This document shows positions 6,474 through 44,579 of a stretch of 46,237 bases of DNA, in pieces. Origin of the DNA: an uncultured Verrucomicrobiota bacterium (GTDB lineage: Bacteria; Verrucomicrobiota; Kiritimatiellia; Kiritimatiellales; Tichowtungiaceae); contig CAIKWE010000055.1 of assembly GCA_903831085.1 (NCBI GenBank), positions 1 through 46,237 of the forward strand. Direction: 5' to 3'. The notes under the pieces are model-generated. The model was given only the letters and a program-made list of their open reading frames with translations, did no database searches and had not been told where the DNA came from. Position numbers and translations under genes: made by a program. Every line of letters starts with the position of its first letter. Positions within the stretch are counted from its first letter, which is position 1.

Positions 6474-7397
6474 TTATACGCCCTTCACCGGCACCGCTCC
6501 ATGTTTTTTCCACACCTTGGAAATTTCTAACACAAGTTTTCCAATGTCTGGAAAATCCGCGACTTCAACCCACTCCACCTTGAGCTGATGGCGGAACCAT
6601 GTCATCTGACGTTTAGAAAGCTGGCGGGTTCGAATAACGGTTTTTTCTTTGGCTTGCGCCTCCGTCATTTCGCCGCGCAGAACGGCGAAGGCTTCGGCGT
6701 AGCCGATGGCGTGTTGCGCCGTCGAAGACAGTTTGAGCCCGGCGAGACCGCGCGCTTCTTCCAGAAGACCGCCCGCGTACATTTTTTCGACCCGCTCGGC
6801 GATCCGCCGGTTCAGCTCATCGCGCTCGACGTGCAGCCCGATGATGGTCGGCATTTCGCCCTTCCAACTATCGGACGGCTTCTTTCCTTCCAGAAGCCGG
6901 GTGAGGCGACGCGGATTTTCTTTATCGGCAAGCGCTTCATAGGCTTCGGGCGCGGCGCGACGCGCTTCGGTCTGCAATTCGGCGAGCGGCATTTTTTCCG
7001 TGCGCTCACGGAGCGTTTCGTCAGCGGTCGGCAGATCGTCGAGTCCCTGCAAAAGACACTTCACATAAAGTCCGGTGCCGCCGGTAACGATGGGTGGTTC
7101 CGAACATTGCCTGCCCTGAGCCTGGTCGAAGGGGAAAGCCGGTTTCACAGCGTTAAGCCAGTCGCCGACGCTGAACGATTCGGTCGGGTCAGCCAGATCA
7201 ACACCGAAAGTTTTGACGCGGGAGCGTTCTTCCGGCGACGGTTTGGCGGTGCCAATGTCCATGCCGCGATAGATGTTCATCGAGTCGGCGGAGATAATGG
7301 ACACGCCGGTCTGTTCGGCAATCCACTGGGCGACGGCGCTTTTGCCCGATGCCGTCGGACCGACGAGCACGAACGCGCTTGGATTACTTCGTGTCAT
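6474..7397 (-). CDS. miaA: tRNA dimethylallyltransferase MiaA
   Basis: MiaA adds a dimethylallyl group to A37 of tRNAs that read UNN codons. The 307-residue protein has the P-loop GPTASGKS, then SADSMNIYRGMDIGTAKP, the VTGGTGLY motif and QHAIGYAEA, all diagnostic. The ATG at 7397 overlaps the end of lspA by 14 bases; reading further upstream only gives an lspA shadow. Between the expected helix and the PPIVTGG strand there is an extra FPFDQAQGRQCSE, which comes from an in-frame copy of a dispersed repeat (7111-7134). The enzyme motifs are intact on both sides, so it is probably functional. Confidence 0.95.
   Translation of the reverse strand: MTRSNPSAFVLVGPTASGKSAVAQWIAEQTGVSIISADSMNIYRGMDIGTAKPSPEERSRVKTFGVDLADPTESFSVGDWLNAVKPAFPFDQAQGRQCSEPPIVTGGTGLYVKCLLQGLDDLPTADETLRERTEKMPLAELQTEARRAAPEAYEALADKENPRRLTRLLEGKKPSDSWKGEMPTIIGLHVERDELNRRIAERVEKMYAGGLLEEARGLAGLKLSSTAQHAIGYAEAFAVLRGEMTEAQAKEKTVIRTRQLSKRQMTWFRHQLKVEWVEVADFPDIGKLVLEISKVWKKHGAVPVKGV
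6508..6553. repeat. Two copies of the TTCCA-N5-TGGAA palindrome
   Basis: Exact matches lie at 6508-6522 and 6539-6553, with centres 31 bases apart. They fall in the 3' end of miaA and upstream of the phosphoesterase start. They belong to a motif that recurs across the window. Confidence 0.8.
7111..7134. repeat. CCCTGAGCCTGGTCGAAGGGG-type repeat inside miaA
   Basis: This 24-base element matches the intergenic copies near 37264-37309 and 42896-42945 (CTTCGGCAGGTTCG..., GCTCAGGGCAGGC in the other orientation). It is a multiple of three and leaves the miaA frame open. Confidence 0.7.
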
Positions 7398-7866
7398 TGG
7401 CGGAATTTTTGAGCGGATGGCGGGTGTGCCAGAGCGAGGAAAGCATGTAGAGGCCGACGGCGATACAGATGGAAGAGTCGGCAACATTGAAGGACGGCCA
7501 GTGGTACGGACCGATATAGAAATCAAGGAAGTCGGTGACCCAGCCGACACGGATGCGGTCGATCAGGTTGCCGCAGATGCCGCCGACCATCAGGCCGAGC
7601 GCAATCCGATGATCGAACGTCGGGTTGAGTACCTTGCGGTGGTAGACCGCCAGCAGAATCAGCACGACGATGGAAAGGATGATGAGTATCGGCATCTGCC
7701 CGCCGAACATCCCCCACGCCGCGCCTTCGTTGCGGACATAGACCAGATTGAAAAAACCGGGAATGATGGCCTGCGGCTCGCCGCCGTAGATTAATGATGC
7801 GCGTACCCACAGTTTGGCCAACTGATCGAGCGTAACAACGACCAGGCCCAGAATGAGTACCAGCAT
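7384..7866 (-). CDS. lspA: Lipoprotein signal peptidase LspA
   Basis: LspA is the inner-membrane aspartyl protease that removes the signal peptide of prolipoproteins after diacylglycerol is attached. The 160-residue protein has four hydrophobic segments and the conserved blocks VRNEGAAWGMF, GNLIDRIRVGWVTDFLDF and FNVADSSI; the last two carry the two catalytic aspartates. Its length is typical. It sits between the DksA-like gene (nine bases upstream) and miaA (overlapping), so these are co-transcribed. Confidence 0.96.
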   Translation of the reverse strand: MLVLILGLVVVTLDQLAKLWVRASLIYGGEPQAIIPGFFNLVYVRNEGAAWGMFGGQMPILIILSIVVLILLAVYHRKVLNPTFDHRIALGLMVGGICGNLIDRIRVGWVTDFLDFYIGPYHWPSFNVADSSICIAVGLYMLSSLWHTRHPLKNSANDTK

Positions 7867-7875
7867 GGGATTCTC

Positions 7876-8517
7876 CTAGCTGCGCATGGTGCCGCCGAAG
7901 GGGCGGTAGTGAGCACGGCCTTTTTCGAGTTCGGACTGCGCACGAACGGTGTAGCGCACATACGGCAGCGCCTGAAGGCGTTCGAAATTAATCGGCTGGC
8001 CGGTCAGTTCACAGATGCCGAAGGTTCCTTTTTCGACACGGCGCAACGCGGCGTCGATTTCAAAAATAACTTCCTGTTCGCTGCCCATCATGTTGAGTTC
8101 CATTTCGCGATCAAACGTATCGGTGCCCTGGTCAGACAGCGACGGGTCGCGCTGATTGGCTTCGAGGTTGTCGCGTGAAAGAGTGCTGTATTCGCCGGAA
8201 ACGCGCTCGCGGAGCGTCAGCAGAATGTCCTTGAACTCGCGGACTTCCTTGGCGGTCAGCTTTCTGCCGGGAGGCGTGGCAGGTATATGGGGAGCCGGTT
8301 TGTGCACATGAACCGGAAGGACGGATTTTTTAACCGTCTTTTTCGCGACGGGTTTCGCCTTGGCGGATACTTTTTTGACGGCCTTTTTAGCCGGTGCTTT
8401 CTTGGCGGCTTTTTTAGCAACCTTTTTAGCCGGAGCCTTTTTTGCGGCCTTCTTGGCCGGAGCTTTTTTGGCGGCCTTTTTAGCCGTTTTCTTTTTAACA
8501 ACCTTTTTTGCGACCAT
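7876..8517 (-). CDS. TraR/DksA-family protein with Lys/Ala-rich histone-like tail and no zinc cysteines
   Basis: The C-terminal part (about 85-213) has the DksA/TraR layout: a coiled-coil region, the acidic SDQGTDTFDREMELN segment, then GTFGICELTGQPINFERLQALPYVRYTVRAQ. In DksA this last block holds four zinc cysteines; here only one (in ICELTG) remains, so the fold must be zinc-free. The first 65 or so residues are tandem KKAAKKAPAKKA-like repeats as in histone H1-type DNA-binding tails. The chosen ATG at 8517 starts MVAKKVVKKK; an upstream start at 8583 is less likely. The role is presumably binding to RNA polymerase or to DNA, but the substitutions make true DksA activity uncertain. It is the first gene of the lspA-miaA-phosphoesterase operon. 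Confidence 0.85.
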   Translation of the reverse strand: MVAKKVVKKKTAKKAAKKAPAKKAAKKAPAKKVAKKAAKKAPAKKAVKKVSAKAKPVAKKTVKKSVLPVHVHKPAPHIPATPPGRKLTAKEVREFKDILLTLRERVSGEYSTLSRDNLEANQRDPSLSDQGTDTFDREMELNMMGSEQEVIFEIDAALRRVEKGTFGICELTGQPINFERLQALPYVRYTVRAQSELEKGRAHYRPFGGTMRS

Positions 8518-8620
8518 TCGTAAAGCCCTTCCCGTTATCCAAAATCGATTCCCAGCTAAAAAAATAGGGGGTGCTTTTATCACGCGTCCCAGCGGGTGTC
8601 AATCGGCATCCCCTCCAAAT

Positions 8621-9388
8621 TCAGGAAACCGTCAACCCGTCCCACGGAACCTCAATCCCGACGGGCAGCGACGCCTGGAGCGTATCGTGATCCGAATGAT
8701 GCGTCAGGTGGGTCAGGAACGACCGTTTAGCACCGATCCGTTGCAAATTCTCCACGCACTCCTCGATAGAAAAATGGGTCGCGTGCCTGCCGGGACGCAG
8801 GCCGTCAAGAATCATGACATCAAGGCGTTCCAATATTTGGAAGCTTTTCGTCGAAATGCCGGAGCAGTCGGGAATGTACGCCAGCCGCCTGCCATCCGCT
8901 TCGACCAGAAATCCGTAAACCGGTTCCTCGCCGTGCATGACCGGAACCGGCGTCACCTTCGCGCCGCCGATTTCCACCGGCGCGGTCATTTCCGTAAAGA
9001 CCACACGCGGCACGCCACCGAACGAATGGCTCGGCTTATCAACATAATCAAACTTGGTTCGCATCGAGGCGATCGTCTCCGGCGAACCGTAGACGTGAAT
9101 ATGCGCCTGCTGCAGGTCACTAAAGCGACGGATGTCGTCAAAACCGAAAATGTGGTCGGCGTGCGGATGAGTGATAAAAACCGCATCGACCCGCTCCACG
9201 CCAAAGGTCAGCACCTGATCGCGCAGATCCGGCGGCGTGTCGAACAGCAAGTGCTTTCCGCCCGCCTGAACATAGAGACTGCACCGGCGGCGTTTATTCT
9301 TCGGATTGTCCGACCGGCAGACTGCGCAGTTGCATCCAATCATTGGAACGCCGTGCGAGGTTCCCGTGCCTAGAAAAGTGAACTTCAT
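8621..9388 (-). CDS. MBL-fold metallo-hydrolase, PhnP-like
   Basis: The 255-residue product carries the metallo-beta-lactamase metal motif HPHADHIFG, an early GTGTSHGVPMIGC with a nearby CAVC, VMHGEEP, IPDCSG and a final THLTHHSDHD. The N-terminal GTGTSxGxPxxGCxCxxC arrangement is that of PhnP-like phosphodiesterases and related tRNase Z-like hydrolases. It is probably a cytoplasmic cyclic phosphodiesterase, with the exact substrate unknown. There is no phn operon around it. One TTCCA-N5-TGGAA palindrome lies in its coding sequence at 8828-8842. Confidence 0.88.
   Translation of the reverse strand: MKFTFLGTGTSHGVPMIGCNCAVCRSDNPKNKRRRCSLYVQAGGKHLLFDTPPDLRDQVLTFGVERVDAVFITHPHADHIFGFDDIRRFSDLQQAHIHVYGSPETIASMRTKFDYVDKPSHSFGGVPRVVFTEMTAPVEIGGAKVTPVPVMHGEEPVYGFLVEADGRRLAYIPDCSGISTKSFQILERLDVMILDGLRPGRHATHFSIEECVENLQRIGAKRSFLTHLTHHSDHDTLQASLPVGIEVPWDGLTVS
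8828..8842. repeat. TTCCA-N5-TGGAA palindrome in the MBL-fold gene
   Basis: An exact copy of the dispersed 15-bp palindrome lies within the coding sequence. Confidence 0.75.
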
Positions 9389-9683
9389 GACAGTCGTTTA
9401 ACTTCCAAGGCTCTTGATTGCACGTCAAATCGTGTTCGCCGTGCTGAGGGGAATAGATTTTCACAGAAGGTCACAAAGGAAAACGAAGTAAGACCAAACC
9501 CGCATGACACCCGGTAGAAGAACGCCCGGTCGGGTGACCGGGCCTACAGTTTTCAGATTCTGATTTTGTAGGCCGGGTGACCTCACCCGGCGGATACGGT
9601 TAAATACCGAGTTTAACCCGGAAATGGCACAAGAGGGATGTCCTTTGTTTACCTTCGTTACCTTCTGTAAAACTCTGAAGGAT
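9389..9683. repeat. Intergenic repeat block between MBL gene and infA
   Basis: No gene is seen here. A TTCACAGAAGGTCACAAAGG-type word near 9458-9483 faces its inverted counterpart near 9640-9672 (CCTTTG...CCTTCTGTAAAA), with a REP-like inverted pair (9524-9591) between them. The same word pair recurs around 42.6 and 44.1 kb. Confidence 0.7.
9524..9591. repeat. Inverted pair of GTAG-headed REP hairpins
   Basis: The left unit (9524-9547, minus) is GTAG followed by stem GCCCGGTC/GACCGGGC. The right unit (9568-9591, plus) is GTAG followed by the perfect 9-bp stem GCCGGGTGA/TCACCCGGC. The two heads face each other across about 20 bases, as in BIME-type REP pairs. Confidence 0.8.
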
Positions 9684-9908
9684 TTAAGCGTGGCGGTAGG
9701 TGATGCGGCCTTTGGTCAGATCGTAGGCGGAGATTTCAACGGTCACCTTGTCGCCGATAGAAATGCGGATGAAATTTTTGCGGATTTTGCCGGAGACGTG
9801 CGCCAGCACCGTGTGACCGTTATCGAACTTCACACGATACATCGTGCCGGGAAGCACCTCGGTCACCGTCCCGTCCAATGAAACTAAACTACCTTCATCT
9901 TTCGCCAT
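9684..9908 (-). CDS. infA: Translation initiation factor IF-1
   Basis: IF-1 binds the ribosomal A site and assists IF-2 and IF-3 at initiation. The 74-residue S1-fold protein has [42 protein letters not shown] and [11 protein letters not shown], nearly identical in layout to known IF-1. The ATG at 9908 follows an AGGGGA ribosome binding site. It stands alone here, away from the ribosomal-protein operon where many bacteria keep it. Confidence 0.96.
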
Positions 9909-9937
9909 ACAGTCCCCTGCACAGAAATTAGGAATGC

Positions 9938-9967
9938 TGTATATTCTTTCCCCGATACCGGAAACAA
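9938..9967 (-). promoter_or_regulatory. Candidate sigma70 promoter of infA
   Basis: On the minus strand TTGTTT is followed after 18 bases by TATACA, about 30 bases upstream of the start codon of infA. Position and match are reasonable, but it is unproven. Confidence 0.4.
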
Positions 9968-10020
9968 GTGGAAAATATGGAGATTTGGCATCATGGGACT
10001 GAGAATAAAACATTCCCGGA

Positions 10021-10049
10021 TTGCCGCCCCCGAACCGCCGCGCTACATT
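10021..10049 (+). promoter_or_regulatory. Candidate sigma70 promoter of the 10.1-kb hypothetical gene
   Basis: TTGCCG and TACATT are 17 bases apart, ending 66 bases before the ATG. A very similar CGCCGNGCTACATT context precedes purM, which supports it. Confidence 0.4.
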
Positions 10050-10115
10050 CCGAGCATTGGTAATTTAACCCGTCAAAAAACTGAAGTGCGCGAATAACAC
10101 TGTTGTGTTTGAAAG

Positions 10116-10760
10116 ATGAAAGATTTCCTGAGTCATTACTATCGCAGGGGCAAGCCTCCATTCCGGAGCATGTCCTATCTACCGGACGACGAGGCAGAGC
10201 ATGTCGGGTTGGCGTTGTTTAAGGAAAACCTAAAGGCCTTTCGCAGGTTTGGAAAGTTTCCCACATACTGGCCTCGTCGCAGAAGAACGGAACAGTGGGT
10301 CCGGTCTGAGTTCGTGAAGAAAGGCGGAATGCCCGTTGAGCCGTATCCTCAGTGCATGGTTCTCGGAACATCCAGCTACATCGCATCACTGGGAGATGAC
10401 GGCGGGTACGTTGAACTTCGCATTCCCCTTTCAGACTTCGACCCGAAAGAAGTCAGCTTCACATATTCCGATTGCATGGTCTCCATGTGGCTGTTCGAGG
10501 AACAGCAGAACAAAAAATATTTCAATCCACGGATTCACGGCAAGGTATTCACCTTGCCGGAGATATTGGAGGTTGTGAAAACCCACGGCATCCCAGAGAG
10601 CGAATGGCAAACGGACCCCACAAAGTCATTCGATTTCTTCGTGGAAGCCCAAGTGTGGAGTTTTCGACCGTTGAAGAAGTACATTGAGAAACACAACCAA
10701 GCATCGGATGCTATCGGCGCGGATGCTACGCCTCAGCATCAACGCTGGCGTTCAGCCTAA
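10116..10760 (+). CDS. Hypothetical protein, 214 residues
   Basis: I do not recognise the family. The protein is soluble with no signal peptide or membrane segment, basic in the first half (WPRRRRTEQWVR), and rich in aromatic residues. The last 20 residues (around ASDAIGADATPQ) look like a low-complexity tail. A GAAAG site lies directly before the ATG, and a plausible promoter lies at 10021-10049. It runs on the opposite strand to its neighbours, stands alone, and its end overlaps the end of the COG2509-type gene by nine bases in a convergent arrangement. It may be an accessory gene. Coding status is likely from the length and frame, but function is unknown. Confidence 0.6.
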   Translation: MKDFLSHYYRRGKPPFRSMSYLPDDEAEHVGLALFKENLKAFRRFGKFPTYWPRRRRTEQWVRSEFVKKGGMPVEPYPQCMVLGTSSYIASLGDDGGYVELRIPLSDFDPKEVSFTYSDCMVSMWLFEEQQNKKYFNPRIHGKVFTLPEILEVVKTHGIPESEWQTDPTKSFDFFVEAQVWSFRPLKKYIEKHNQASDAIGADATPQHQRWRSA

Positions 10761-12374: not shown

Positions 12375-12445
12375 AGGAATTTTCTTTAAATCAGGCGGGA
12401 AAGGTATATTAGTGCCCGCTTATTTTGCGACCAAAAAGGAGTTCC

Positions 12446-14110: not shown

Positions 14111-14111
14111 A

Positions 14112-15909: not shown

Positions 15910-17157
15910 TCAGTCCGCGGCCATTGCTTTCGCAGCCAGATATCCGGTCGTCCAGGCGGCTTGCAGATTGAACCCGCCGGTCAGCGCGTCGATATCGAGC
16001 ACTTCGCCCGCAAAATAGAGACCGGGACAAAGACGGCTTTCCATGGATTGGAAATTCACCTCTTTCAGCCGAATGCCGCCGCAGGTGACAAACTCCTCGC
16101 GGTGTGGATTTTTCCCAGTGATTGGAAGAACAAAGCCGCTGACCTGCGCCGCGATATGCCGCAGCGCCTTGACCGGACACGCGCCCCACTCACGGGTCCC
16201 GTCCACACCGGCGCGGGCCACCAGCAGTTTCCAAAGCCTGGAAGAAAGCCCGACCGGCGACCACGTTCCGACCAGTTTACGCGGCGAAGCGGCGCGGAAT
16301 TTTTCCAAGGTTTGGAAAACCTGTTCCTCGCTCTGCGCCGGAAGCCAGTTGATCTTCATGTCGAAACGATACTTCGTTTCCGCCAGTGTCCGCGCGCCAA
16401 ACGATGAAAGTCGTAAAACTGCCGGGCCGCTCACTCCGCCGTGCGTGATCAGCAAAGCGCCTTCAGCTTTCAGCCCCGGTGCGCTGACGCGGACGTCTTC
16501 AACCACAATTCCCGCCAGCGCGGTGAAATCTTTGTCCGACGTCTTGAAGGTGAAAAGCGACGGCACGCACGGCTCAATCGCGTGCCCCAGTCCTTCGATA
16601 AACGCCCCGCCGCCTGTGGCGACCAAAAGTTTTTTACAGGCAAGCTGCTCCCCGTTCGCCAGCTTGACGTTAAATCCGCCCTCGAACTTCCACACTTTGG
16701 ACCCGAGCGAAGCGAGAGGGGCCCCGTTATCGCGGGGCAGCAGCCGAAGGATGCGGCAAACTTCAGAGTTCGTTCGAATGTCCGCTCCACTTTTGAGCAG
16801 AGCATTGATGACATCCTCCGAAGTATCCGACTGTGGGAAAACACAACCATCATCGAGCGTAACCAGCGGGACACCGTGCGCCTCGAACCACTCAATAGTT
16901 TCCGCCGGACCGAAGCGGTGAAACGGGCCGATCAGCTCCGCGCCGCCGCGCGGATAGTTTTGAACAAAGGTGCGGATGTCGGAACACTCGTGCGTCAGGT
17001 TGCAGCGTCCGCCGCCGGAAACGCGCACCTTCGCCAGCGGCTTCGCGCCCTTTTCCAGCACAAGGACTTTCAACTCCGGTGCCTCTTCGGCAAGCACGGC
17101 GGCGGCGAATATTCCCGCCGCCCCTCCGCCGATTATGATGACATCTGAAGAAATCAT
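15910..17157 (-). CDS. BaiN/YhiN-type FAD-dependent oxidoreductase
   Basis: The 415-residue cytoplasmic flavoprotein belongs to the HI0933/BaiN family. The N-terminal IIGGGAAGIFAAAVLAEE binds the ADP part of FAD, and KVRVSGGGRCNLTHE is the family signature. The C-terminal FVTCGGIRLKEV and FAGEVLDIDALTGGFNLQAAWTTG motifs are also typical. Some members reduce bile-acid intermediates; for most the reaction is unknown. Three exact TTCCA-N5-TGGAA palindromes (16039, 16229, 16303) and one near match (16122) lie in its coding sequence. Its stop codon is five bases from that of the convergent upstream gene. Confidence 0.9.
   Translation of the reverse strand: MISSDVIIIGGGAAGIFAAAVLAEEAPELKVLVLEKGAKPLAKVRVSGGGRCNLTHECSDIRTFVQNYPRGGAELIGPFHRFGPAETIEWFEAHGVPLVTLDDGCVFPQSDTSEDVINALLKSGADIRTNSEVCRILRLLPRDNGAPLASLGSKVWKFEGGFNVKLANGEQLACKKLLVATGGGAFIEGLGHAIEPCVPSLFTFKTSDKDFTALAGIVVEDVRVSAPGLKAEGALLITHGGVSGPAVLRLSSFGARTLAETKYRFDMKINWLPAQSEEQVFQTLEKFRAASPRKLVGTWSPVGLSSRLWKLLVARAGVDGTREWGACPVKALRHIAAQVSGFVLPITGKNPHREEFVTCGGIRLKEVNFQSMESRLCPGLYFAGEVLDIDALTGGFNLQAAWTTGYLAAKAMAAD
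16039..16317. repeat. Cluster of TTCCA-N5-TGGAA palindromes within the BaiN-type gene
   Basis: Exact copies are at 16039-16053, 16229-16243 and 16303-16317. A one-mismatch copy is at 16122-16136. The centre bases differ in every copy while the arms are constant. Confidence 0.8.
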
Positions 17158-17542
17158 GGGAGAAACTTATACCACAGAACACACCGAACACACGGAAATG
17201 ATTTAGGTGGAGCGGGCGCTCCGCGCACGCTTTCCAAAAGATGGAACCTGACCTCCGGGCAGGTTTCCCGAACGCGCTCGGAGATCGCGTTCCACCTCAT
17301 TGTAGCCGAGGTCCATGACCTCGGATTCCCGTCTAATCCGCGATCCCGGATCGCGGCTACAACGAATATAAAAAACCGGCCAATAAGAAACCGCCTCAGG
17401 GTCACGGCCCCCGCCCTACAAACCTGATGTTGTCTTTTGTCTTGAGCGCTTTCAGACAACCCTCTAGTTTCTGGCTAAAGTGATCGCGCCGTTACAAAAA
17501 CAATGATTTCAAAGTGCACTCAAAAACTGCAGGAGTTAGAGC
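17158..17542. repeat. Intergenic repeat block with four REP units and one palindrome
   Basis: No gene is visible. Units: GTGG-headed at 17207-17222 (stem GGAGC/GCTCC); a GTGG-headed one reading minus at 17270-17295 (stem GAACGCG/CGCGTTC); GTAG-headed at 17302-17324 (CCGAGGTC/GACCTCGG) and 17338-17360 (minus, CCGCGATC/GATCGCGG). A TTCCA-N5-TGGAA palindrome sits at 17232-17246 between the first two. The word CCACAGAACACACCGAACAC occurs at 17171-17190. The last 80 bases probably hold the promoter of the next gene. Confidence 0.75.
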
Positions 17543-17830: not shown

Positions 17831-18028
17831 AAACGCCCCGGAGTGCGTGACGTCGGAGCTTATCCGAGATCGGTAACCGCCTGCTCGACGACTTTCCGCG
17901 GCAGGCCGCAACGGTTAAGTTCGGCCATAAACGGGTTGCTTTTCCTCAAATCCGAATTTCGAAATCCGAAGCACGAAACAAATTAAAATTTCCAATGATT
18001 GGAAAATTCCAATTTCAAGTTTCAAATT
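17831..18028. repeat. AT-rich intergenic block with repeat words
   Basis: No gene is seen. The words AAATCCGAATTTCGAAATCC and AATTTCAAGTTTCAAATTTC surround an exact TTCCA-N5-TGGAA palindrome at 17990-18004, directly beyond the end of speA. Confidence 0.6.
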
Positions 18029-20042: not shown

Positions 20043-20086
20043 TTCCAGCCATTGGAACGCCCGTGCGGCCATTCCAACTTTTGGAA
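20043..20086. repeat. Two TTCCA-N5-TGGAA palindromes between speA and purM
   Basis: Exact matches lie at 20043-20057 and 20072-20086, with centres 29 bases apart, just upstream of a candidate purM promoter. The position would suit a transcription factor site. Confidence 0.8.
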
Positions 20087-21183: not shown

Positions 21184-21421
21184 TTTCTAGAGTGGAAGAG
21201 GGTTGCCGCTCCCTCTGGTCGCTGCTTTCGCAAGCTCAAGCCTCGCTTCGCGTCCAGCCTCTGGCCTGCGGCAGGATGCCGCTTCCACATTCCATATCCC
21301 AAGGTGGGGCGGGCGCTCCGCGCACGCTTACTTGTCCGCCGTAGGAGGAAACGCGCTCGGAGATCGCGTTCCGCCTGCTGGTTCCAAAGCTTGGAAACGC
21401 GGTGAGGACACCGCGTCTACG
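21184..21421. repeat. Intergenic repeat block between purM and the ABC exporter
   Basis: No gene is seen. REP units: minus 21268-21288 (GTGG head, GCGGCA/TGCCGC), plus from 21304 (GTGG head), minus about 21350-21374 (stem like that at 17270), minus 21398-21420 (GTAG head, CGCGGTG/CACCGCG). An exact TTCCA-N5-TGGAA palindrome lies at 21382-21396. The block shares its GCGGGCGCTCCGCGCACGC word with 17213-17230. Confidence 0.75.
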
Positions 21422-23371
21422 TTATCTGACCGCATGCTGCACGTCGCACAATTTCCGATAAACCCCGTTTTTCGCATACAGTTCCGCATGAGAGCCTCTT
21501 TCAACAATAACCCCCTGATCCATCACCAGAATCGTGTCTGCGTGCTGAACCGTGCTCAAACGATGCGCGATCACGAAAACCGTCCGGTTCTTCATCAGCC
21601 GGTTAATCGCCTCTTGAACCTGCTGCTCGGTGACTGTATCCAAAGCGCTGGTCGCTTCGTCCAGGATCAGGATCGGAGGATTCTTCAGGATCGCACGAGC
21701 GATCGCAACGCGCTGCCGTTCGCCGCCGCTCAAAACAAAACCCTTATCTCCGACAATCCGATTGTAGCCATCCGGATGCTGCATAATAAACGGATGCGCA
21801 TTGGCCATCTGCGCGGCAGATTCGATCTGTGCCTGAGTGGCCCCCGGTGTGCCGTAGGCGATGTTTTCGGCGATCGTCGTGTTGAAGAGGATGGTTTCCT
21901 GTGTCACGACGCCAATCAAATTCCGCAAATCTCCCATCTCCAAATCGCGAAGATCCACCCCGTCCAACAGCACGCGTCCGTTGATCGGATCATAAAACCG
22001 CGCCAAAAGATTAGCCAGTGTCGTTTTGCCCGATCCGGTGGAACCCACCACGGCGATGGTCTTACCACGTTCCAGCACAAGATTTGCGTCGTGAACAACC
22101 CGTCGCTCATTTTGATTATAGGAGAAATCCACATGCTCGAAAACCAGCGCCTGGTCGAACGACTTCTTTGGAACCGGATTCACCGCCAGCGGCAACGAGG
22201 TGTCCATGTCCAGGAACGAATAGATCCGCGTCAACGCCGCACGGCCCGACTCGATCGACGCCTGAATTTTTCCAAGCGATTTCAACGGTTTGTAGGCCAC
22301 AACAAAAGCCGTTAAAAGGGGGAGGATGTCTGCAAGGGTTTTTCCTTTCCAGAAGCAAATGATGAGAAAAATCAGGGTCAATAAAATGGTCACCATCTCC
22401 ATGACAGGCGAAACCAGCAAGCCGACGCGAACCCCGCGCAGCGAAATCTTCACACACTGCTGATTAACATTCTTGAACTTCCTTTTCTCATCTTCCTCCG
22501 CGTGATAGGCCTTGACCACGCGAATACCCGTCAAATTTTCCAACATGCTTGAGCCCAGCACAGCCCCCTGCTCCATTCCTCTGCGGGCATAATTCCGGAT
22601 TCTCCGGCCCACCATGAACAAGGGCAACAGGGCTAATGGGTACCCAACAAAAGCCATGAGAATCATCTCGACCATGTCGTTGGCGATCGCAAAATAGATG
22701 ACGAACCCTACGGATGCAATAATCTCGAAGGGCGCCCGGCACAACTCCGCAACTGTATGAGCAACCACGCCCTGAACCGTTCCGGGATCCCCGTTGCAGC
22801 GACTCATGATCCTGCCCACATCCATCTGGCCGAAAAACTTCAGCGACTGGTTCTGGAGATGGTCGAACATTTGATTCCGCAAATCCCTGACCACACGCAA
22901 CCCCACCCACTGTAGCGCATAACCGTTCAGATATAACGTTCCAAGACGGAAAGCCAACGCCAGCGGCAACACAAACAACATCAGTAGAAGGAATGACGTC
23001 CTAACGCCGCCCTTCTCGTCGGCAATCGAAATACCCAGTTTCTTGGCAACCTTCTCCGCGTCCTTAAACCACCCGGGAAGCTTCTCCGGTTTTTTGACTC
23101 CTGACTCCTGACTGCCGCCCTCTGCCTCCTGATTCCCGACTTCTGATTTCTGACCGCTGACCTCTGATTTCTGTTCTCCCCCGCCGCCCGAAGGACTCTG
23201 CATCTGCATGATCGCAGGCTGAAGCACCTGGAATACCGGCACCCAAGTCCCACCGACCAACATACCCGAAAAAATGCCCAGAGCCAAAACCCCGCTATAC
23301 TTCCGTGCCTGCTTGAACAAGCGTCCATAGACCTGCTTGGCTGTAAACTCCTTATCAAACCATTCCTGCAT
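21422..23371 (-). CDS. MsbA-like ABC exporter, fused transmembrane and ATPase domains
   Basis: The 649-residue half-transporter has six hydrophobic helices in its first 340 residues. An ATPase domain (about 400-640) follows with Walker A GSTGSGKTT, Q-loop VTQETILFN, signature LSGGERQRVAIARA, Walker B LILDEATSALD and the switch in VIAHRLS. This is the lipid/oligosaccharide flippase type (MsbA or PglK-like). A Gln/Ser/Glu-rich stretch after the first helix comes from an in-frame low-complexity repeat (23096-23174) and would lie in the periplasmic loop. Being at the end of the glycan locus, it probably flips a lipid-linked glycan; that is inference. Confidence 0.93.
   Translation of the reverse strand: MQEWFDKEFTAKQVYGRLFKQARKYSGVLALGIFSGMLVGGTWVPVFQVLQPAIMQMQSPSGGGGEQKSEVSGQKSEVGNQEAEGGSQESGVKKPEKLPGWFKDAEKVAKKLGISIADEKGGVRTSFLLLMLFVLPLALAFRLGTLYLNGYALQWVGLRVVRDLRNQMFDHLQNQSLKFFGQMDVGRIMSRCNGDPGTVQGVVAHTVAELCRAPFEIIASVGFVIYFAIANDMVEMILMAFVGYPLALLPLFMVGRRIRNYARRGMEQGAVLGSSMLENLTGIRVVKAYHAEEDEKRKFKNVNQQCVKISLRGVRVGLLVSPVMEMVTILLTLIFLIICFWKGKTLADILPLLTAFVVAYKPLKSLGKIQASIESGRAALTRIYSFLDMDTSLPLAVNPVPKKSFDQALVFEHVDFSYNQNERRVVHDANLVLERGKTIAVVGSTGSGKTTLANLLARFYDPINGRVLLDGVDLRDLEMGDLRNLIGVVTQETILFNTTIAENIAYGTPGATQAQIESAAQMANAHPFIMQHPDGYNRIVGDKGFVLSGGERQRVAIARAILKNPPILILDEATSALDTVTEQQVQEAINRLMKNRTVFVIAHRLSTVQHADTILVMDQGVIVERGSHAELYAKNGVYRKLCDVQHAVR
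23096..23174. repeat. Low-complexity GACTCCTGACTCCTGACTG-type word in the ABC exporter gene
   Basis: This is a 79-base run of CTGACTTCTGAY-like units, read in the gene as QKSEVSGQKSEV-type peptide. It belongs to the same family as elements in three other genes of the window. Confidence 0.75.
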
Positions 23372-36539: not shown

Positions 36540-36590
36540 AAAAACCTTTATTCGACCACGGATTACACGGATGCCACTGCTCTTTTTGAT

Positions 36591-36683
36591 TTATTTTAAC
36601 GGCCGCCCGTGCTGCGCATCGCACATCTTGACATCAAGATTCAGTTCGGCCCGCAACTGCGGCGCGAGCTGAGCGTCAGACAT
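36591..36683 (-). CDS. Short frame after the nucleotidyltransferase, 30 residues
   Basis: An ATG overlaps the nucleotidyltransferase stop by eight bases and opens MSDAQLAPQLRAELNLDVKM, then 10 more residues to a TAA. In MNT/HEPN pairs a partner gene starts just here; this frame is too short to be one and may be a truncated remnant. I cannot assign a family. Confidence 0.3.
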   Translation of the reverse strand: MSDAQLAPQLRAELNLDVKMCDAQHGRPLK

Positions 36684-38291: not shown

Positions 38292-38318
38292 GCGTTGGCA
38301 CCTCATAATAAACCGTCG

Positions 38319-39329: not shown

Positions 39330-39349
39330 ACGAACTGTCGCTTACGTGA

Positions 39350-40216
39350 TTAACGATCCAACCGTTTATGTGTAAACAGACCGCCTGAAACACCAATCTT
39401 AAAATGCTGACCCCGCCACCACCGGCAATTCAGCGGTTTCTCCATATCCTGAAAACCGTTAACAGTGCGGCTTCGCGGATGCCGATCCGCATAATCCAGC
39501 ATCTGGAGAAAAAACTTTTTCGTGGTCAAAATAGACTGATTCGTCCAGTTGATGACCTTGGAATCGACGATATACATTCCATCCTCTGCCTTCCAGATAT
39601 ACTTCGGAAATAATCGTTCCGGATTTTTCTCGATGTAAAGGCTCCGCCCCATCATGCGGATTCCGTAACTCGGATAAAAAAGACGCTTTAGAAAACGGCT
39701 CGACTTCCGCCGCTGAGAAATCTGAACCTCATCGGTCTGAACAAACCGCTCATCGATCTCAGACGGGGTGTGAACTGTCGTATACTTGCGCACATCCGCG
39801 AACTGCTCGCCGGGGGTGAATCTTGACCGCAACCTCATCACATCAATTTGTCCCGACGCGAGACCGTTCACGGCCCTGTTTATTTCAAACTTCGCTGTCG
39901 CCGCATCCACAACCAAAGGACAATCGTTTTCGAGATACAGAATGTATTCGCTGTTCAAATTCTCCACAACCCAGCGCATCCCGTTCTGGATGCCGACATT
40001 ATCGGGGCGCCCGCACCAGTCTAAATTATACTTCTTGGCCGTCTGAATATCTTCATCGCAAACGCATTGAAAAAAAAGTTTCGTTTCCGCGAAGAGGTCT
40101 AAAAAGTTGTGCTGCGCATACGCCTTCAGGGTTGCCTCAATCGTCCGCGGAGCCTTGTAAGAAAGGATGCCCACCGAGACCGGAATTTTAGAATGACCTG
40201 CTTTTCCTTCGCCCAT
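39350..40216 (-). CDS. GT2-like glycosyltransferase
   Basis: The 288-residue protein starts KIPVSVGILSYKAPRTIEATLKAY and has PDNVGIQNGMRWVVENLNSEYILYLENDCPLV, a GT-A core with an acidic metal site ENDCP. The C-terminal half has no motif I recognise. It is the first gene of the minus-strand glycan operon, with a GGAGAG site before its ATG. Confidence 0.78.
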   Translation of the reverse strand: MGEGKAGHSKIPVSVGILSYKAPRTIEATLKAYAQHNFLDLFAETKLFFQCVCDEDIQTAKKYNLDWCGRPDNVGIQNGMRWVVENLNSEYILYLENDCPLVVDAATAKFEINRAVNGLASGQIDVMRLRSRFTPGEQFADVRKYTTVHTPSEIDERFVQTDEVQISQRRKSSRFLKRLFYPSYGIRMMGRSLYIEKNPERLFPKYIWKAEDGMYIVDSKVINWTNQSILTTKKFFLQMLDYADRHPRSRTVNGFQDMEKPLNCRWWRGQHFKIGVSGGLFTHKRLDR

Positions 40217-40386
40217 TTTCTCTCCGCTTCATCATAAAAACCCATCGCCCGGCTCACGACCGTAAAATAACCCATCCCTGGCTGATCGCTCACCCGCCGG
40301 GTAGTTGCCGGACAGTTATAGCGCAACACCCCGGCCATTAAAAGCTTCCTGGGGCCGGAATTATACGGAGCCCATTCGTCTTCATT
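40192..40386 (-). pseudogene. Possible decayed gene fragment upstream of the glycan operon
   Basis: A short frame encodes DEWAPYNSGPRKLLMAG, a PATTRRVSDQPGMGYF stretch and a WAKEK end, with protein-like composition. It is cut at its 5' side by the ATTCGTGTGATTAGTGG repeat word and runs into the start of the next gene in another frame. I do not recognise the family. It could be the tail of a lost glycan gene. Confidence 0.3.
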
Positions 40387-40833
40387 CGTGTGATTAGTGG
40401 GCAGTCTGTTTTTGATTGCGGCTTTTATTACCGCCCCCACCGTGGGCGGCTACAGAAAATTAGATTCGCTCTCTTCTGTGGGTGCGGACGGTGGCCGCGC
40501 CTTTCCGCGTGTTCTGCAACCCTCGGAACCTTCGTTGCCCTTCGTTTCCTTCTGTAAAATCTCTCCATCTTCCGGCCTCCATGATTTCCAACCCTCGGAA
40601 CCTTTCCGTGTGTTCGGTGTCTTCCGTGGTGAATCCCTCTTCCAACCCTTAGAATCCTCTCTGTGCCTCCGTGCCCTCTGTGGTGAAAATCCCCATCCGC
40701 GTTCATCCGTGTCCATCCGTGGTTAATCTCTTTCCAAACCCTGTGATTCAGAGAATAAGATAAATCCTTTGTGGGCTGTTCAAAATATGATAGGTGATCT
40801 TCGAGAATCAAATCGCGAACCTTCACGATCAAT
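40387..40833. repeat. Intergenic mosaic of repeat words
   Basis: No gene is seen. In order: REP minus 40431-40453, REP plus 40478-40500, the CTTCGTTTCCTTCTGTAAAA word, a TTCCAACCCTCGGAA variant (40586-40600) and a TTCCAACCCTTAGAA variant (40640-40654), TGTGTTCGGTGTCTTCCGTGG, and CATCCGTGTCCATCCGTGG. Confidence 0.75.
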
Positions 40834-42606
40834 ATGAAGTCTGACTCAACCAGATCCCTGCGCGGCCGATGGCCATTGATCCTCGCCGGCCTCACCGCCG
40901 TGGCGGGTCTCTGCCTTTCTGTGTACCTCCGCTCCCGCATTGCGCAAACAGAGGCCACCACGGCGCGGCTCACGGCGGAAACCCTGCGGCTGAACACCGA
41001 ACAGGAGCTGAACCTGTTCGTCGAAGTGCTCGAATCGGTTCGCGCCCTGCACGCGTTGTCCGCCGCGGTCAATCAGGCGGCCATGGACGAATTCATTGAA
41101 AAAGGTCTGGTTCACCAGCACGCCGTGCTCGGGGCGTTCGGACTCACCCAGCGGATCAGCCCGTGGCTGCGCGCCGTGCTCGAAGAACAGACAAAAGCAA
41201 ATCCGGAAACGGGCTACCGCTTCCTGCAGCAGGGTCCGGACGGAACCTGGGTTCCGTCCGAACCCCGGAACGCTTATTATCCTCTCACATGGCAAAACCG
41301 GAAAGACGCGCTGAACATCCCCATTGGATTCGACTTCTCCTCTCTGAGCGAGGCCCGCCGCACGATCAAACGGATCGAACAGACCCGCCGCACCGCCTTA
41401 GTTCCCTCGCCGATCCCCGACTTTTCCGCGTCCGGCGCCAACTCCTATTGGGTTTTCGCTCCCGTTGTGCCGGGACGGGTCGAAGCCAACCCCATGTATA
41501 TGCCGGACACCGTCATCGGGTTTGCCGTTGCGGTGCTCCATCCAGAGACGATCCTGAAACGCGTTGCCGCGCGCTCCTCCGTGTCGCCGTCCGGACTCCG
41601 GTTGAATTTAATGGTTCCGCCGGATCCGAAGGCAAAAGAAACGATCCAGCTCGTCAACGGCGCGTGGCTCTACCGCTATCCGCTGGAAGCCATCGACGCT
41701 CAATGGATTTTTGAGTGTTCTCTGCCGGGCACCGTCACCGGTCACCGGTCTGCGGCGGCGCTGGCGGCCGGACTGCTCATCACCGCGCTCATGACCAGCC
41801 AGTTGCTGTTCCTCAGTGGCCGAACCAGAAAAATCGAGGCTAAGGTGCTGGCCCGCACGGAAGATCTGCGCATCGCCAACGCCCGCCTTGAAAAAAGTTT
41901 CCATGAACGGGCGCACCTTGAAGAGGAAATGAATGAGCTTGCCGCGCGCGAACGCCGCCGAATGGGCCGCGACCTGCACGACTCGCTCGGCCAGAAGCTC
42001 ACCGGAGCCGTTTTCCTCAGCCGTTCCCTGCTGGACTATTTTTCGAACAGAAAAGATCAGGAGTCAGGAGTCAGGGGTTTGGAGTCCGAAATCAGCAATC
42101 GGCAATCGGCAATCGAAAATCAGGAAGTTCACGCCCGGACGCTGAACGAAACTCTTAAATCCGCAGTCAGTCAGGTGCGGAATATGGCGCGCGGACTCGC
42201 CCCTGTAACCCTCAACGACGAAAGCCTCTGCGAGGCGCTCGAACAGCTGGCTGAAGAAATGACAGGGATGTACGGTGTTTCGTGCGAGGTCGCCGAATGC
42301 GACGACCTGTCCGCTCTCGGTCAGAAAACCAAAGAACAGCTCTACCTCATCGCCCGCGAAGCGGTGAACAACGCCGCCCGCCACGCGCAGGCCGGACGCG
42401 TAACCGTTCGGCTGACCGGCGGTGAAGCCGGCTGGAAGCTGTGCGTTGAAGACGACGGCAAGGGACTGTCCGGGACACAGCAGTCTGCCGGAGAAGGCAT
42501 GGGCATACGGATCATGCGGCACCGCGCCGGTCTGATCGGAGCCAGATTCGCCATGAGCCCGGCCTCCGGCCGCGGCACCCGCGTTGAAGTAACCAGTAAT
42601 GCGTGA
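40834..42606 (+). CDS. CHASE-domain sensor histidine kinase (NarX-like)
   Basis: The 590-residue membrane kinase has an N-terminal helix (about 10-30), an extracytoplasmic CHASE-like domain (about 50-270, with AFGLTQRISPWLR and YYPLTWQNRKDALNIPIGFD), a second helix (about 305-325), a HisKA_3 domain with RDLHDSLGQKLTG (phospho-histidine) and a HATPase domain with EAVNNAARHAQA, VEDDGKGL and GEGMGIRIMRHRA. It partners the LuxR-type regulator downstream. A 70-base low-complexity repeat sits in frame between the two dimerisation helices (42055-42125). No strong ribosome binding site is seen before the ATG. Confidence 0.9.
   Translation: MKSDSTRSLRGRWPLILAGLTAVAGLCLSVYLRSRIAQTEATTARLTAETLRLNTEQELNLFVEVLESVRALHALSAAVNQAAMDEFIEKGLVHQHAVLGAFGLTQRISPWLRAVLEEQTKANPETGYRFLQQGPDGTWVPSEPRNAYYPLTWQNRKDALNIPIGFDFSSLSEARRTIKRIEQTRRTALVPSPIPDFSASGANSYWVFAPVVPGRVEANPMYMPDTVIGFAVAVLHPETILKRVAARSSVSPSGLRLNLMVPPDPKAKETIQLVNGAWLYRYPLEAIDAQWIFECSLPGTVTGHRSAAALAAGLLITALMTSQLLFLSGRTRKIEAKVLARTEDLRIANARLEKSFHERAHLEEEMNELAARERRRMGRDLHDSLGQKLTGAVFLSRSLLDYFSNRKDQESGVRGLESEISNRQSAIENQEVHARTLNETLKSAVSQVRNMARGLAPVTLNDESLCEALEQLAEEMTGMYGVSCEVAECDDLSALGQKTKEQLYLIAREAVNNAARHAQAGRVTVRLTGGEAGWKLCVEDDGKGLSGTQQSAGEGMGIRIMRHRAGLIGARFAMSPASGRGTRVEVTSNA
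42055..42125. repeat. Low-complexity word in the kinase gene
   Basis: Units GGAGTCAGGAGTCAGG and CAATCGGCAATCGGCAATCG follow each other and are read as QESGVRGLESEISNRQSAIE. The element lies at the turn of the kinase dimerisation hairpin. Confidence 0.75.
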
Positions 42607-43322
42607 TGCGTAATGGATAATTTTATTTCACAGAAGGTAACGAAGGACAACGAAGGGAATTAAAAAACTCTAAAAACTGCGGTTCCATCATCCGAAGCCA
42701 ACCTTCGTTCACCTTTGTTTCCTTCTGTAAAAAACTCTTTGCTTGCGGCTTTTATTACCGCCCCACTGCGGGCGGCTACAGAAAATTAGATTCTCTCTCT
42801 TCTGTGGGTGCGGACGTTGGCCGCGCCTCTTCCGCGTGTTCTGAGGGCGGTCTTCCCCTTCGTTTTCCTTCGTTACCTTCTGTGAAAAATCTCTTCCCCT
42901 TCGGCAGGTTCGACAAGCTCACCGCAGGCAAGCTCAGGGCAGGCAACCCTTGGAACCTTTTTGTGCCTTTTGGTGTTTTTGCCCGTCGCCTTGCTCCTTG
43001 CTTCGCATTCGCGAAGCCTGTCTCCCTCTGGTCGGCTCGCGGTTCCGTTTTCCAACCCTCGGAACCCATTCGTGTTAATTCGCGTTCATTCGCGGTTCCG
43101 TTTTCCAACCTCTGGAATCTTTTTATGGCTTCTCGTGTTTCTTGCGGCTATTCTCTCCAACGGAACCCTGAACTGTGAATTCAAAAATCGAAAAACAAAA
43201 CCCGGCCTTCGTTTCCCTTCGTTGCCTTCTGTTAAAAATCTTTTCCACCCCTCGGAACCTTTTTGTGATTTCTTGTGTTTTTTGTGGCTATTAAGCATAT
43301 TCGATCGGTGAATATTAAAGAT
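42607..43322. repeat. 700-base repeat mosaic between kinase and regulator
   Basis: No gene is seen. It starts with a palindromic MITE-like element (42626-42735). It then holds a REP pair (42758-42779 minus, 42804-42826 plus), further CCTTCGTTACCTTCTGTG words, the CTTCGGCAGGTTCGACAAGC word (42896-42945), an exact TTCCA-N5-TGGAA palindrome (43103-43117) and variants with CGGAA (43050, 43243). Words of the type TTCTTGTGTTTTTTGTGGC occur twice. Confidence 0.75.
42626..42735. mobile_element. MITE-like palindromic element, copy A
   Basis: TTTCACAGAAGG... at the left faces ...CCTTCTGTAAAA at the right, with about 27 bases of imperfect terminal inverted repeat. A second copy with the same interior (ATTAAAAA, CTAAAAACTG, GATTCCAT or GGTTCCAT) lies at 44069-44170. 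No coding capacity. Confidence 0.55.
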
Positions 43323-44051
43323 ATGAATTACTCGGCAGATAAACCGGCCCGCGTCCTGATCGTTGACGACCACGCCATTGTCCGTTACGGCATGGGCGTG
43401 ATGCTCTCCGGCGCGAACGATCTGACTCTGTGCGGAGAGGCCGGAACCTACGACGAAGCGCTGACGGCCATTCGCGAACTCAAACCCGACGTTGCCGTCA
43501 TAGACCTCATCCTCTACGACCGGAGCGGCCTCGACCTCATCCGGGAAATCAGACGTCAGGAGTCAGAGAACAGAGAACAGAGATCAGACAACCTTCTGAC
43601 CTCTGACCTCCGGCCTCCGACCTCTGTCACCCTCCCCATCCTCGTCATGTCCATGCACGACGAAGCCACCCATGCCGAAAAAGCCCTGCGGGCCGGCGCT
43701 CAGGGTTACATTATGAAAGAAGATGCCGACGAAGTGCTCGTCGAAGCTTTGCGCGCCGTGCTCAGCGGAAAACTCCACGTCAGCGGAGACATCAACGAAA
43801 AACTGCTCCGCACCTATGTTGAGAGCGACGACAGCGCGGTAAGCAGCGGCGTGGAAAGCCTGACGGATCGCGAGAAAGAAATTTTTGAATGCCTCGGAAA
43901 AGGACTCACCACGCGCAAAATCGCCGAGCAGTTCAATCTCAGCCCCCGGACCGTGGAAGTGCACCGCGCCAGCATCAAGAAAAAACTGGAGTGCGAAGAC
44001 GCCGCGCAACTCTTGCGCACCGCCGTCCAATGGGTCGAATCCCGCAGTTAA
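43323..44051 (+). CDS. LuxR/NarL-type response regulator
   Basis: The product of about 242 residues has a receiver domain (VLIVDDHAIVRYGM, phospho-aspartate in VAVIDLILYD, then MSMHDE and GAQGYIMKEDA) and a C-terminal LuxR helix-turn-helix (LTDREKEIFECLGKGLTTRKIAEQFNLSPRTVEVHRASIKKKL, shown in part). It should be phosphorylated by the kinase 716 bases upstream. The ATG at 43323 has only a weak site; an in-frame GTG at 43308 is possible. A 73-base repeat is inserted in frame between helix 3 and strand 4 of the receiver (43555-43627), lengthening that loop by about 24 residues. Confidence 0.93.
   Translation: MNYSADKPARVLIVDDHAIVRYGMGVMLSGANDLTLCGEAGTYDEALTAIRELKPDVAVIDLILYDRSGLDLIREIRRQESENREQRSDNLLTSDLRPPTSVTLPILVMSMHDEATHAEKALRAGAQGYIMKEDADEVLVEALRAVLSGKLHVSGDINEKLLRTYVESDDSAVSSGVESLTDREKEIFECLGKGLTTRKIAEQFNLSPRTVEVHRASIKKKLECEDAAQLLRTAVQWVESRS
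43555..43627. repeat. Low-complexity word in the response-regulator gene
   Basis: GTCAGGAGTCAGAGAACAGA faces CTTCTGACCTCTGACCTCCG, so the element is partly palindromic. It is read as ESENREQRSDNLLTSDLRPP and leaves all receiver motifs intact. Confidence 0.75.
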
Positions 44052-44579
44052 AAAACCGCATTGCGTTTGTTTACAGAAGGAAACAAAGGGCAACGAAGGA
44101 AATTAAAAACCTAAAAACTGTGATTCCATTATCCAGCCTTTGTTTTTCCTTCGTTTCCTTCTGTGAAAAATCTTTTCCACCCCTCGGAATCCATTCGTCT
44201 TGATTCGTGCAATTGCCGTTCCCTTTGGTCACTGCCCCGCAATAGCGGAGCCTGCCTCCCTTCGGTCGGCTCGTGGTTCCGTTTTCCAGCCCTTGGAACC
44301 CATTCGTGTTAATTCATGTGATTAGGGGCGGTTATTCCCGCGGGTACCCTATCTCTTACTCTTACTGTGGGTGCGGACGGACGGCCAGCCCTGAGTACCG
44401 CCGAAGGGTGGCCGCGCCTCTTCCGGGGCCACCGGCCCCGGCTACAGAAAACTCCATCTGTTTCTTCGTGGGAGCCTTCTCTCTTACTGTGGGTGCGGAC
44501 GGTGGCCGCGCCTCTTCCGGGGCCACCCGGCCCCGGCTACAGAAAATTCAGAAAAAATATTCCAAAAAAAAGTAGAACT
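44052..44579. repeat. Intergenic repeat block with MITE-like copy B and two REP pairs
   Basis: No gene is seen. MITE-like copy B is at 44069-44170. A TTCCACCCCTCGGAA variant is at 44175 and an exact TTCCA-N5-TGGAA at 44284-44298. REP units are at 44367-44417 (plus, interrupted), 44423-44445 (minus), 44489-44511 (plus) and 44517-44540 (minus). The two REP pairs are near copies of each other. Confidence 0.78.
44381..44408. repeat. 28-base element inserted in a REP copy
   Basis: The REP pair at 44367-44445 matches that at 44489-44540 except for these extra bases, which contain CCCTGAGTACCGCCGAAGGG, a member of the same family as the element in miaA. Confidence 0.7.

What the first reader, a model, noticed from the sequence alone, without database searches (positions are those of the whole stretch)
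6508..44298. Dispersed palindrome TTCCA-N5-TGGAA, 13 exact copies, in genes and between genes
Exact copies start at 6508, 6539, 8828, 16039, 16229, 16303, 17232, 17990, 20043, 20072, 21382, 43103 and 44284. Arms are constant while the five centre bases vary freely. Ten fixed bases in 46 kb predict about 0.04 copies by chance. Six copies lie inside coding sequences, so it is not simply an operator. It could be a binding site for a nucleoid or segregation protein, a methylase or restriction-avoidance signal, a recombination signal, or part of a mobile word. Close pairs have centres 29 and 31 bases apart.
Basis: seen in the sequence. Interest (0 to 1): 0.82.

Follow-up and report, generated by a model that had tools for sequence, protein, structure and literature searches.

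The report
Helix-phased palindromes throughout Kiritimatiellia genomes
A 15-letter mirror-image DNA word is scattered hundreds of times through genomes of a little-studied bacterial group, and neighbouring copies usually sit a whole number of DNA turns apart, which points to an unknown protein that coats or folds these chromosomes.

Summary
All 13 copies lie where stated; shuffles give 0.07. The genome holds 579 copies against 3 for the reversed control word. The centre is not free: 339 of 369 sampled copies read TTCCA-R-N-S-N-Y-TGGAA (8 of 13 in the window). The decisive new fact is spacing: 155 site pairs up to 210 bp apart fall on multiples of 10.50 bp (R 0.84), also 70 pairs inside genes; the window's own genome alone has 13 pairs, R 0.58. 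Of 110 spacers between 31/32-bp neighbours, 103 are distinct. Sites change by point substitution in place. They are 4-fold denser between genes and, pooled, favour convergent over divergent gaps. Enrichment is confined to the window's class in a 387-genome draw of its phylum, and patchy there. Viral contigs hold in-phase pairs far more often than out-of-phase ones (27 against 4 stretches). Best explanation: binding sites of an abundant, self-associating, sequence-specific protein, nucleoid-organising or globally regulating. Architecture matches Lrp-type sites, but the class's Lrp gene does not track the word; the binder is unidentified.

The parts
6508..6522 (.). site TTCCA-CACCT-TGGAA in the 3' end of miaA
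6539..6553 (.). site, 31 bp (3 turns) from 6508, in the 3' end of miaA
8828..8842 (.). site inside metallo-beta-lactamase-fold gene 8621-9388
16039..16053 (.). site inside HI0933-like gene 15910-17157; exact in the G002 orthologue, broken in G009 and G003
16113..16127 (.). one-mismatch site (TCCCAGTGATTGGAA); exact site at this position in G009, G003 and G002; 74 bp from 16039, 116 bp from 16229
16229..16243 (.). site in the same gene, arms conserved in three relatives
16303..16317 (.). site in the same gene, 74 bp (7 turns) from 16229, arms conserved in three relatives
17232..17246 (.). intergenic site within a stretch containing dispersed intergenic repeats
17990..18004 (.). intergenic site just downstream of the arginine decarboxylase gene; arms conserved in L021
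20043..20057 (.). site between the divergent arginine decarboxylase and selD-like genes (selD start inferred downstream of the listed TTG)
20072..20086 (.). site 29 bp from 20043, same gap
21382..21396 (.). site between convergent selD-like and ABC transporter genes, in or beside a dispersed repeat
43103..43117 (.). intergenic site inside a phrase (GGTTCCGTTTTCCA...) that recurs nearby
44284..44298 (.). intergenic site inside the same kind of phrase

Best explanation
The word TTTTCCARNSNYTGGAAAA is the binding site of a homodimeric, sequence-specific DNA-binding protein that is abundant and self-associating. Each dimer reads two half-sites (TTCCA/TGGAA) one helical turn apart on one face of the DNA. 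Dimers on neighbouring sites touch one another or wrap DNA, so pairs are kept mostly at whole numbers of helical turns, most often three (31-32 bp), also two (22), four (42), five (52), seven (73-74). With hundreds to more than 2,000 sites in motif-rich genomes, in and between genes and also in phages, it most likely acts as a nucleoid-organising protein and global modulator, not as the regulator of one pathway. Shown: over-representation, symmetry, helical phasing, conservation and turnover by point substitution, and restriction to one class in the genomes searched. Inferred: that a protein binds, that it oligomerises, that it organises the chromosome. The protein itself is not identified.
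For: Phasing: 155 pairs up to 210 bp, best period 10.50 bp, R 0.84; CDS-only 70 pairs R 0.85; excluding the array-rich genome G048, 117 pairs R 0.82. By source: G000 13 pairs R 0.58 (p 0.014), G011 74 R 0.86, G010 15 R 0.92, G048 38 R 0.91, seven named-relative loci 15 R 0.96; CDS pairs of G000, G011 and G010 alone, 43, R 0.86. Nearest neighbours only, 96 pairs without G048, best period 10.45, z 65. One-mismatch sites are phased with exact sites (G011: 40 pairs, R 0.80; G010: 14, R 0.81; G000: 25, R 0.51) and two-mismatch sites weakly. Independent test in viral contigs: stretches with a pair at 25-27 bp 1, 30-32 bp 14, 35-37 bp 3, 41-43 bp 13. Of 110 spacers between 31/32-bp neighbours in five genomes, 103 are distinct, so duplication did not make the spacing. 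Arms are fully conserved in 36 of 57 alignment rows against 6.9 expected, rows not independent. In a flavoprotein gene four sites at 74/116/74 bp persist or decay by substitutions in four species. Neighbours within 60 bp: 41 against 3.7 expected in G011. Lrp-type proteins show two- or three-turn same-face spacing and wrap DNA (PMC2995911, passages).
Against: No binder found. The class's single Lrp gene is present in motif-poor genomes too, with no consistent difference in its helix-turn-helix among 30 aligned members, and has no site cluster beside it in 30 loci examined. Copy number is very labile: 5 to 2,297 within one genus, odd for an essential architectural system. In the window's own genome phasing alone is only moderate (13 pairs, R 0.58, with 29, 44, 46 and 151 bp off phase). 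21 of 57 ortholog rows have lost the arms. Eleven motif-poor genomes sampled showed no convincing replacement word (one early hit was transposon-like ends). Intrinsic curvature from phased T/A tracts could contribute without a specific protein. Pair counts are not fully independent (the named loci are orthologous), and gene calls are from a home-made caller.
Confidence: 0.72

Rival explanations
1. The binder is the class's Lrp/AsnC-family (feast/famine) protein, whose octamers or juxtaposed dimers wrap DNA; the sites are a genome-scale Lrp regulon.
For: Same architecture as Ss-LrpB's 15-bp consensus TTGCAAAATTTGCAA (PMC4046817 passages): 5-N5-5, one base different per arm. Two- or three-turn same-face spacing is described for the family (PMC2995911 passages). 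An Lrp gene in 52 of 58 relatives.
Against: Lrp is also in motif-poor genomes (for example G046, G053, G055) with no consistent helix-turn-helix difference in the 30 aligned; no cluster at the lrp gene in 30 loci, some of them cut short by contig ends and G000's own not among them; in a 40-genome search no AsnC-type helix-turn-helix tracks the word.
Confidence: 0.2
2. A classical global transcription factor uses the sites as promoter operators; copies in genes are tolerated extras.
For: Four-fold higher density between genes (0.93 against 0.24 per kb); close pairs (29, 31 and 32 bp) upstream of arginine decarboxylase in window, L020 and L048; arrays or pairs just upstream of an IclR-like gene in G048 and G112 and a GntR-like gene in G048; in G048 divergent gaps are denser than convergent ones (3.3 against 2.3 per kb).
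Against: Pooled over four genomes, convergent gaps hold 37 sites in 22.8 kb, divergent 19 in 26.7 kb (p 0.003); the IclR-like genes of G000, G010, G014 and G023 have no such upstream pair; genes beside ten arrays are diverse (GrpE, PheS, OMP decarboxylase, TrpA, a PLP decarboxylase and others); phasing is as strong inside genes.
Confidence: 0.15
3. A mobile or dispersed repeat (REP/MITE-like) whose core is the palindrome.
For: Several intergenic copies in the window lie in or beside phrases repeated through the genus or nearby; some spacers recur in G057 (35 of 42 distinct), where arrays often end contigs.
Against: Outside the core the flanks are nearly featureless in G000 and G011; spacers are otherwise unique; orthologues show substitution, not insertion; transposition does not give 10.5-bp phasing inside genes.
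Confidence: 0.06
4. A self-recognition word: DNA-uptake signal, methylation/restriction-avoidance mark or HIP1-like word.
For: Class-limited, very frequent, absent from the low-GC glycan cluster between 21.4 and 43.1 kb (5.9 expected, P 0.003, gap chosen after seeing it).
Against: None of these predicts same-face spacing or arrays of up to 7 sites at 31/32 bp; viral contigs carry phased pairs. Methylation not testable here.
Confidence: 0.07

Closest known systems
Lrp/AsnC (feast/famine) operator arrays, e.g. Ss-LrpB of Sulfolobus
   Same: 15-bp 5-N5-5 palindrome; adjacent dimers on one helix face two or three turns apart; binding also inside genes (PMC2995911 and PMC4046817 passages)
   Different: Known Lrp sites are degenerate and 37 ChIP peaks are mentioned for Ss-LrpB; here exact arms recur hundreds to 2,297 times in motif-rich genomes, and the class's Lrp gene does not track them
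HIP1 (GCGATCGC) of cyanobacteria
   Same: very frequent palindrome, lineage-limited and patchy
   Different: HIP1 is a contiguous 8-mer linked to orphan methyltransferases (PMC4390886, start of abstract, one passage); this word has a gapped centre and helical phasing
matS, Noc and SlmA sites (recalled)
   Same: palindromic chromosome-organising sites in genes and between
   Different: tens of copies, not phased arrays (recalled); location bias not tested here
NrdR box pairs (recalled)
   Same: paired palindromes about three turns apart
   Different: only at nrd operons, other sequence (recalled)

Membership tests
Lrp/AsnC regulon sites | 15-bp palindrome with 5-bp arms and 5-bp centre | tested here: met
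   Ss-LrpB consensus
Lrp/AsnC regulon sites | adjacent sites on one helix face, two or three turns apart | tested here: met
   22, 31/32 and further multiples of 10.5
Lrp/AsnC regulon sites | an Lrp protein whose presence or reading helix tracks the word | tested here: not met
   same orthologue in rich and poor genomes
Lrp/AsnC regulon sites | site cluster at the lrp gene (autoregulation, common but not universal) | tested here: not met
   0 of 30 lrp loci with a cluster; 4 have a single exact site elsewhere in the locus; some loci are cut short
Lrp/AsnC regulon sites | direct binding | not testable with these tools
   no assay
HIP-type highly iterated palindrome | large excess over composition control, lineage-limited | tested here: met
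HIP-type highly iterated palindrome | linked methylation | not testable with these tools
   no long-read data
Mobile/REP-type repeat | conserved sequence beyond the core; insertion at new places | tested here: not met
   partial exception G057 and some intergenic copies
Promoter operator | preference for gene starts | tested here: not met
   convergent denser than divergent pooled over four genomes; G048 alone goes the other way
LacI-family sites | family present in motif-rich genomes | tested here: not met
   40 genomes: 0 in G003 (767 copies) and G112 (982), 17 in motif-poor G044
IclR- or GntR-family sites | family present in motif-rich genomes | tested here: not met
   23 genomes: IclR 0 in G134 (467 copies, 100% complete) but present, often weakly, in the other motif-rich ones; GntR 0 in G134 and G049. 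Less firm than for LacI
matS/parS-type segregation sites | origin- or terminus-biased location | not tested

The most novel reading that the evidence does not exclude
Kiritimatiellia bacteria have a sequence-encoded chromatin: a dedicated protein forms wrapped or filamentous complexes on helix-phased palindromes written across the whole chromosome, genes included, with individual sites won and lost by point mutation, and phages adopt the same code.
Probability: 0.4. Interest if true: 0.9.

Novelty: new variant of a known kind. Interest (0 to 1): 0.78.

Why it matters
Bacterial nucleoid proteins mostly bind loosely, and chromosome-organising sites number in the tens (recalled). Here the genome itself appears to record the geometry of a nucleoprotein complex: 10.5-bp register, 3-turn repeats, hundreds of sites, many genomes. 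That makes how bacterial DNA is wrapped in vivo readable from sequence and directly testable with one pull-down, in a class with few cultured members.

Tried and rejected
A replacement word in motif-poor genomes: TCAGA-N5-TCTGA in G053 looked 66-fold enriched but its copies share long flanks and come in pairs like the ends of a transposon. Eleven poor genomes were sampled (G053 260 kb, ten others about 40-80 kb each); apart from the same word in G046 (TCCAA-N3-TTGGA, 4 copies), the listed top palindromes had 3 to 8 copies with differing gaps, none convincing. G046 holds near-matches of the word, including a pair 32 bp apart. AAGGT-N5-ACCTT in G108 is nearly one fixed repeat.

Binder candidates: Lrp, LacI, IclR, GntR, and a sigma-like protein beside a four-site array in G026 (only 8 of 58 genomes have a match). 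None tracks the sites. A first gene caller was too strict and was replaced.

Rfam and tRNA searches of the window gave nothing. Eight searches of the paper library listed no paper that I recognised as describing this word; exact words were sought only. Seen: listings and abstract starts; passages of PMC2995911, PMC4046817, PMC4390886, PMC7356697, PMC10880615 and PMC12985086; no paper was read whole.
Full report
CHECK. The 13 copies are exactly where stated; 100 dinucleotide shuffles give 0.07 on average. No other 5-N5-5 arm in the window exceeds 3 copies. The genome in which the window lies (G000, 2.14 Mb, 60 contigs) has 579 copies, the reversed control word 3. So the stated refuting result did not occur.

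WHERE IT LIVES. Near relatives of an encoded protein are assemblies titled Verrucomicrobia, Kiritimatiellaeota, Kiritimatiellales or Pontiellaceae; the class name Kiritimatiellia is inferred from these. Thirteen same-genus genomes have 181 to 1,091 copies; 29 further genomes of the order have 5 to 2,297. In a phylum-wide draw of 387 genomes, the 256 outside the class (my count from the table) have at most 30 copies, while 30 of the 114 in-class genomes outside the order have 50 or more, up to 1,808. Phyla beyond this one were not searched for the word itself, except through viral contigs. Genome sizes suggest that G010, G024, G025 and G014 are Tichowtungia aerotolerans, Pontiella sulfatireligans, P. 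desulfatans and P. agarivorans (sizes from PMC10880615 passages): 951, 829, 670 and 1,146 copies. This naming is inference.

ANATOMY. Sampled stretches (G000 345 kb, G011 344 kb, G010 240 kb, G048 135 kb) hold 369 copies. 339 of 369 read TTCCA-R-N-S-N-Y-TGGAA; in the window 8 of 13 do. Flanks are T-rich on the left and A-rich on the right for two or three bases, then nearly featureless in G000 and G011. The half-sites are 10 bp apart centre to centre, one turn.

PHASING. Distances between sites cluster at 22, 31/32, 41/42, 52, 63, 73/74, 83, 94, 115 and so on. All 155 pairs up to 210 bp (G000, G011, G010, G048 and seven named-relative loci; motif-poor G053 contributes none): best period 10.50 bp, R 0.84; pairs both inside genes, 70: R 0.85; pairs over 35 bp apart without G048, 77: R 0.78. 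By source: G000 13 pairs R 0.58 (p 0.014; 29, 44, 46 and 151 bp are off phase), G011 74 R 0.86, G010 15 R 0.92, G048 38 R 0.91, named loci 15 R 0.96 (orthologous, so partly the same sites); gene-internal pairs of G000, G011 and G010 alone, 43, R 0.86. Nearest neighbours only (96 pairs, without G048) give 10.45 bp. One-mismatch copies keep phase with exact ones in G000 (25 pairs, R 0.51), G011 (40, R 0.80) and G010 (14, R 0.81); two-mismatch copies only weakly. In G057, G048 and G052, arrays of three to seven sites run at 31/32 bp with few exceptions (one gap of 74, one of 33; most of these loci were chosen for arrays). Of 110 spacers between 31/32-bp neighbours in five genomes, 103 are distinct; mean core identity is 0.33-0.53. 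So duplication is not the cause; G057 is the partial exception, with recurring spacers.

LOCATION. With a home-made gene caller over four genomes: 144 copies in 155 kb between genes (0.93 per kb), 212 in 871 kb of genes (0.24 per kb), 13 at unassigned ends; convergent gaps 37 in 22.8 kb, divergent 19 in 26.7 kb (p 0.003). G048 alone goes the other way. The window's 21.7-kb stretch without sites coincides with a glycan-synthesis cluster of lower GC (0.486 against 0.560; glycosyltransferases), where 5.9 would be expected (P 0.003, chosen after seeing it). Gene typicality and site density are not simply related.

EVOLUTION. Over ordered pairs of eight loci, arms were fully conserved in 36 of 57 site rows, 6.9 expected from random positions; the rows are not independent and many come from one gene. 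That gene (HI0933-like) shows four sites at 74/116/74 bp, with substitutions making or breaking sites in four species. Upstream of arginine decarboxylase, one position is an exact site in G003, a one-mismatch copy in G009 and G013, more degenerate in the window, and absent in G008, G006 and G010. In these two places site turnover is by point mutation in place. Some intergenic copies (17232, 21382, 43103, 44284) lie in or beside repeated phrases, so dispersal may also play a part.

PHAGES. IMG/VR stretches with two exact sites: 1 at 25-27 bp, 14 at 30-32, 3 at 35-37, 13 at 41-43. One of the three at 35-37 bp lies between two 42-bp pairs (L330). This is an independent test of phase. Of the contigs checked, L295, L296 and L305 encode terminase and portal proteins, and L295 and L305 also a head protease; L301 (same contig as L305) gave no match and L308 only a transposase-type match. 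L295, L296 and L305 have clusters with 22/31/41-bp gaps outside called genes. Hosts are not known.

WHAT BINDS. The architecture is that of Lrp-family sites: Ss-LrpB's consensus is TTGCAAAATTTGCAA, and two- or three-turn same-face spacing with wrapping is described for the family. But 52 of 58 relatives have an Lrp gene, including motif-poor ones; the reading helices do not separate 30 rich and poor members, and no cluster lies at 30 lrp loci. LacI is absent from G003 and G112 (767 and 982 copies). IclR is absent from G134 (467 copies) but found, often weakly, in the other motif-rich genomes searched, and two of six IclR-like genes looked at have sites just upstream. GntR is absent from G134 and G049. 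These assemblies are 93-100% complete, so an absence could be a gap. Works like an Lrp array: plausible. Is one: not supported.

VERDICT. Helix-phased, class-limited, highly iterated palindrome; most likely the footprint of a cooperative nucleoid-type protein not yet identified.

Noticed in passing
window 21400-43000: Glycosyltransferase/LPS-type cluster with GC 0.486 against 0.560 to its left and no copy of the palindrome in 21.7 kb; probably acquired.
   Followed up: partly
window 9455-9680, 17190-17370, 21200-21430, 42600-44560: Intergenic stretches made of short phrases (for example CCTTCGTTACCTTCTGT, GGGCGGGCGCTCCGCGCACGCTT); those near 17.2 and 21.3 kb recur across the genome and genus. 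Their nature is unexplained.
   Followed up: partly
L158 262-369 (genome G026): Four-site array with a shifted centre (TTCCATASYGTGGAA) upstream of a sigma-70-region-2-like gene in a genome with only 41 exact copies; may be a drifted specificity.
   Followed up: partly
L298 8123-8916 and L300 2462-3255: Two viral stretches with TTCCAC-NNN-GTGGAA pairs 30 bp apart and a third copy 749 bp away; may be their own repressor operators.
   Followed up: no
L205, L207, L208 (genome G053): Multicopy element with TCAGA-N5-TCTGA near both ends; looks like a transposon, not a phased word.
   Followed up: yes
genome G108 (other class): 55 copies of nearly one fixed palindrome AAGGTCAGCGACCTT, found because it is the reversed control pattern.
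   Followed up: partly
L321 and L327 (genome G048), L325 (genome G112): Four-site 31-bp arrays just upstream of an IclR-type and a GntR-type regulator gene, and a pair 32 bp apart upstream of an IclR-type gene.
   Followed up: partly
L330 7667-7801: Viral contig with four sites at 42/36/42 bp: two in-phase pairs about half a turn out of step with each other.
   Followed up: no
window 45418-46062: PEP-CTERM-tagged protein following a histidine kinase and LuxR-type response regulator (40834-44051).
   Followed up: no
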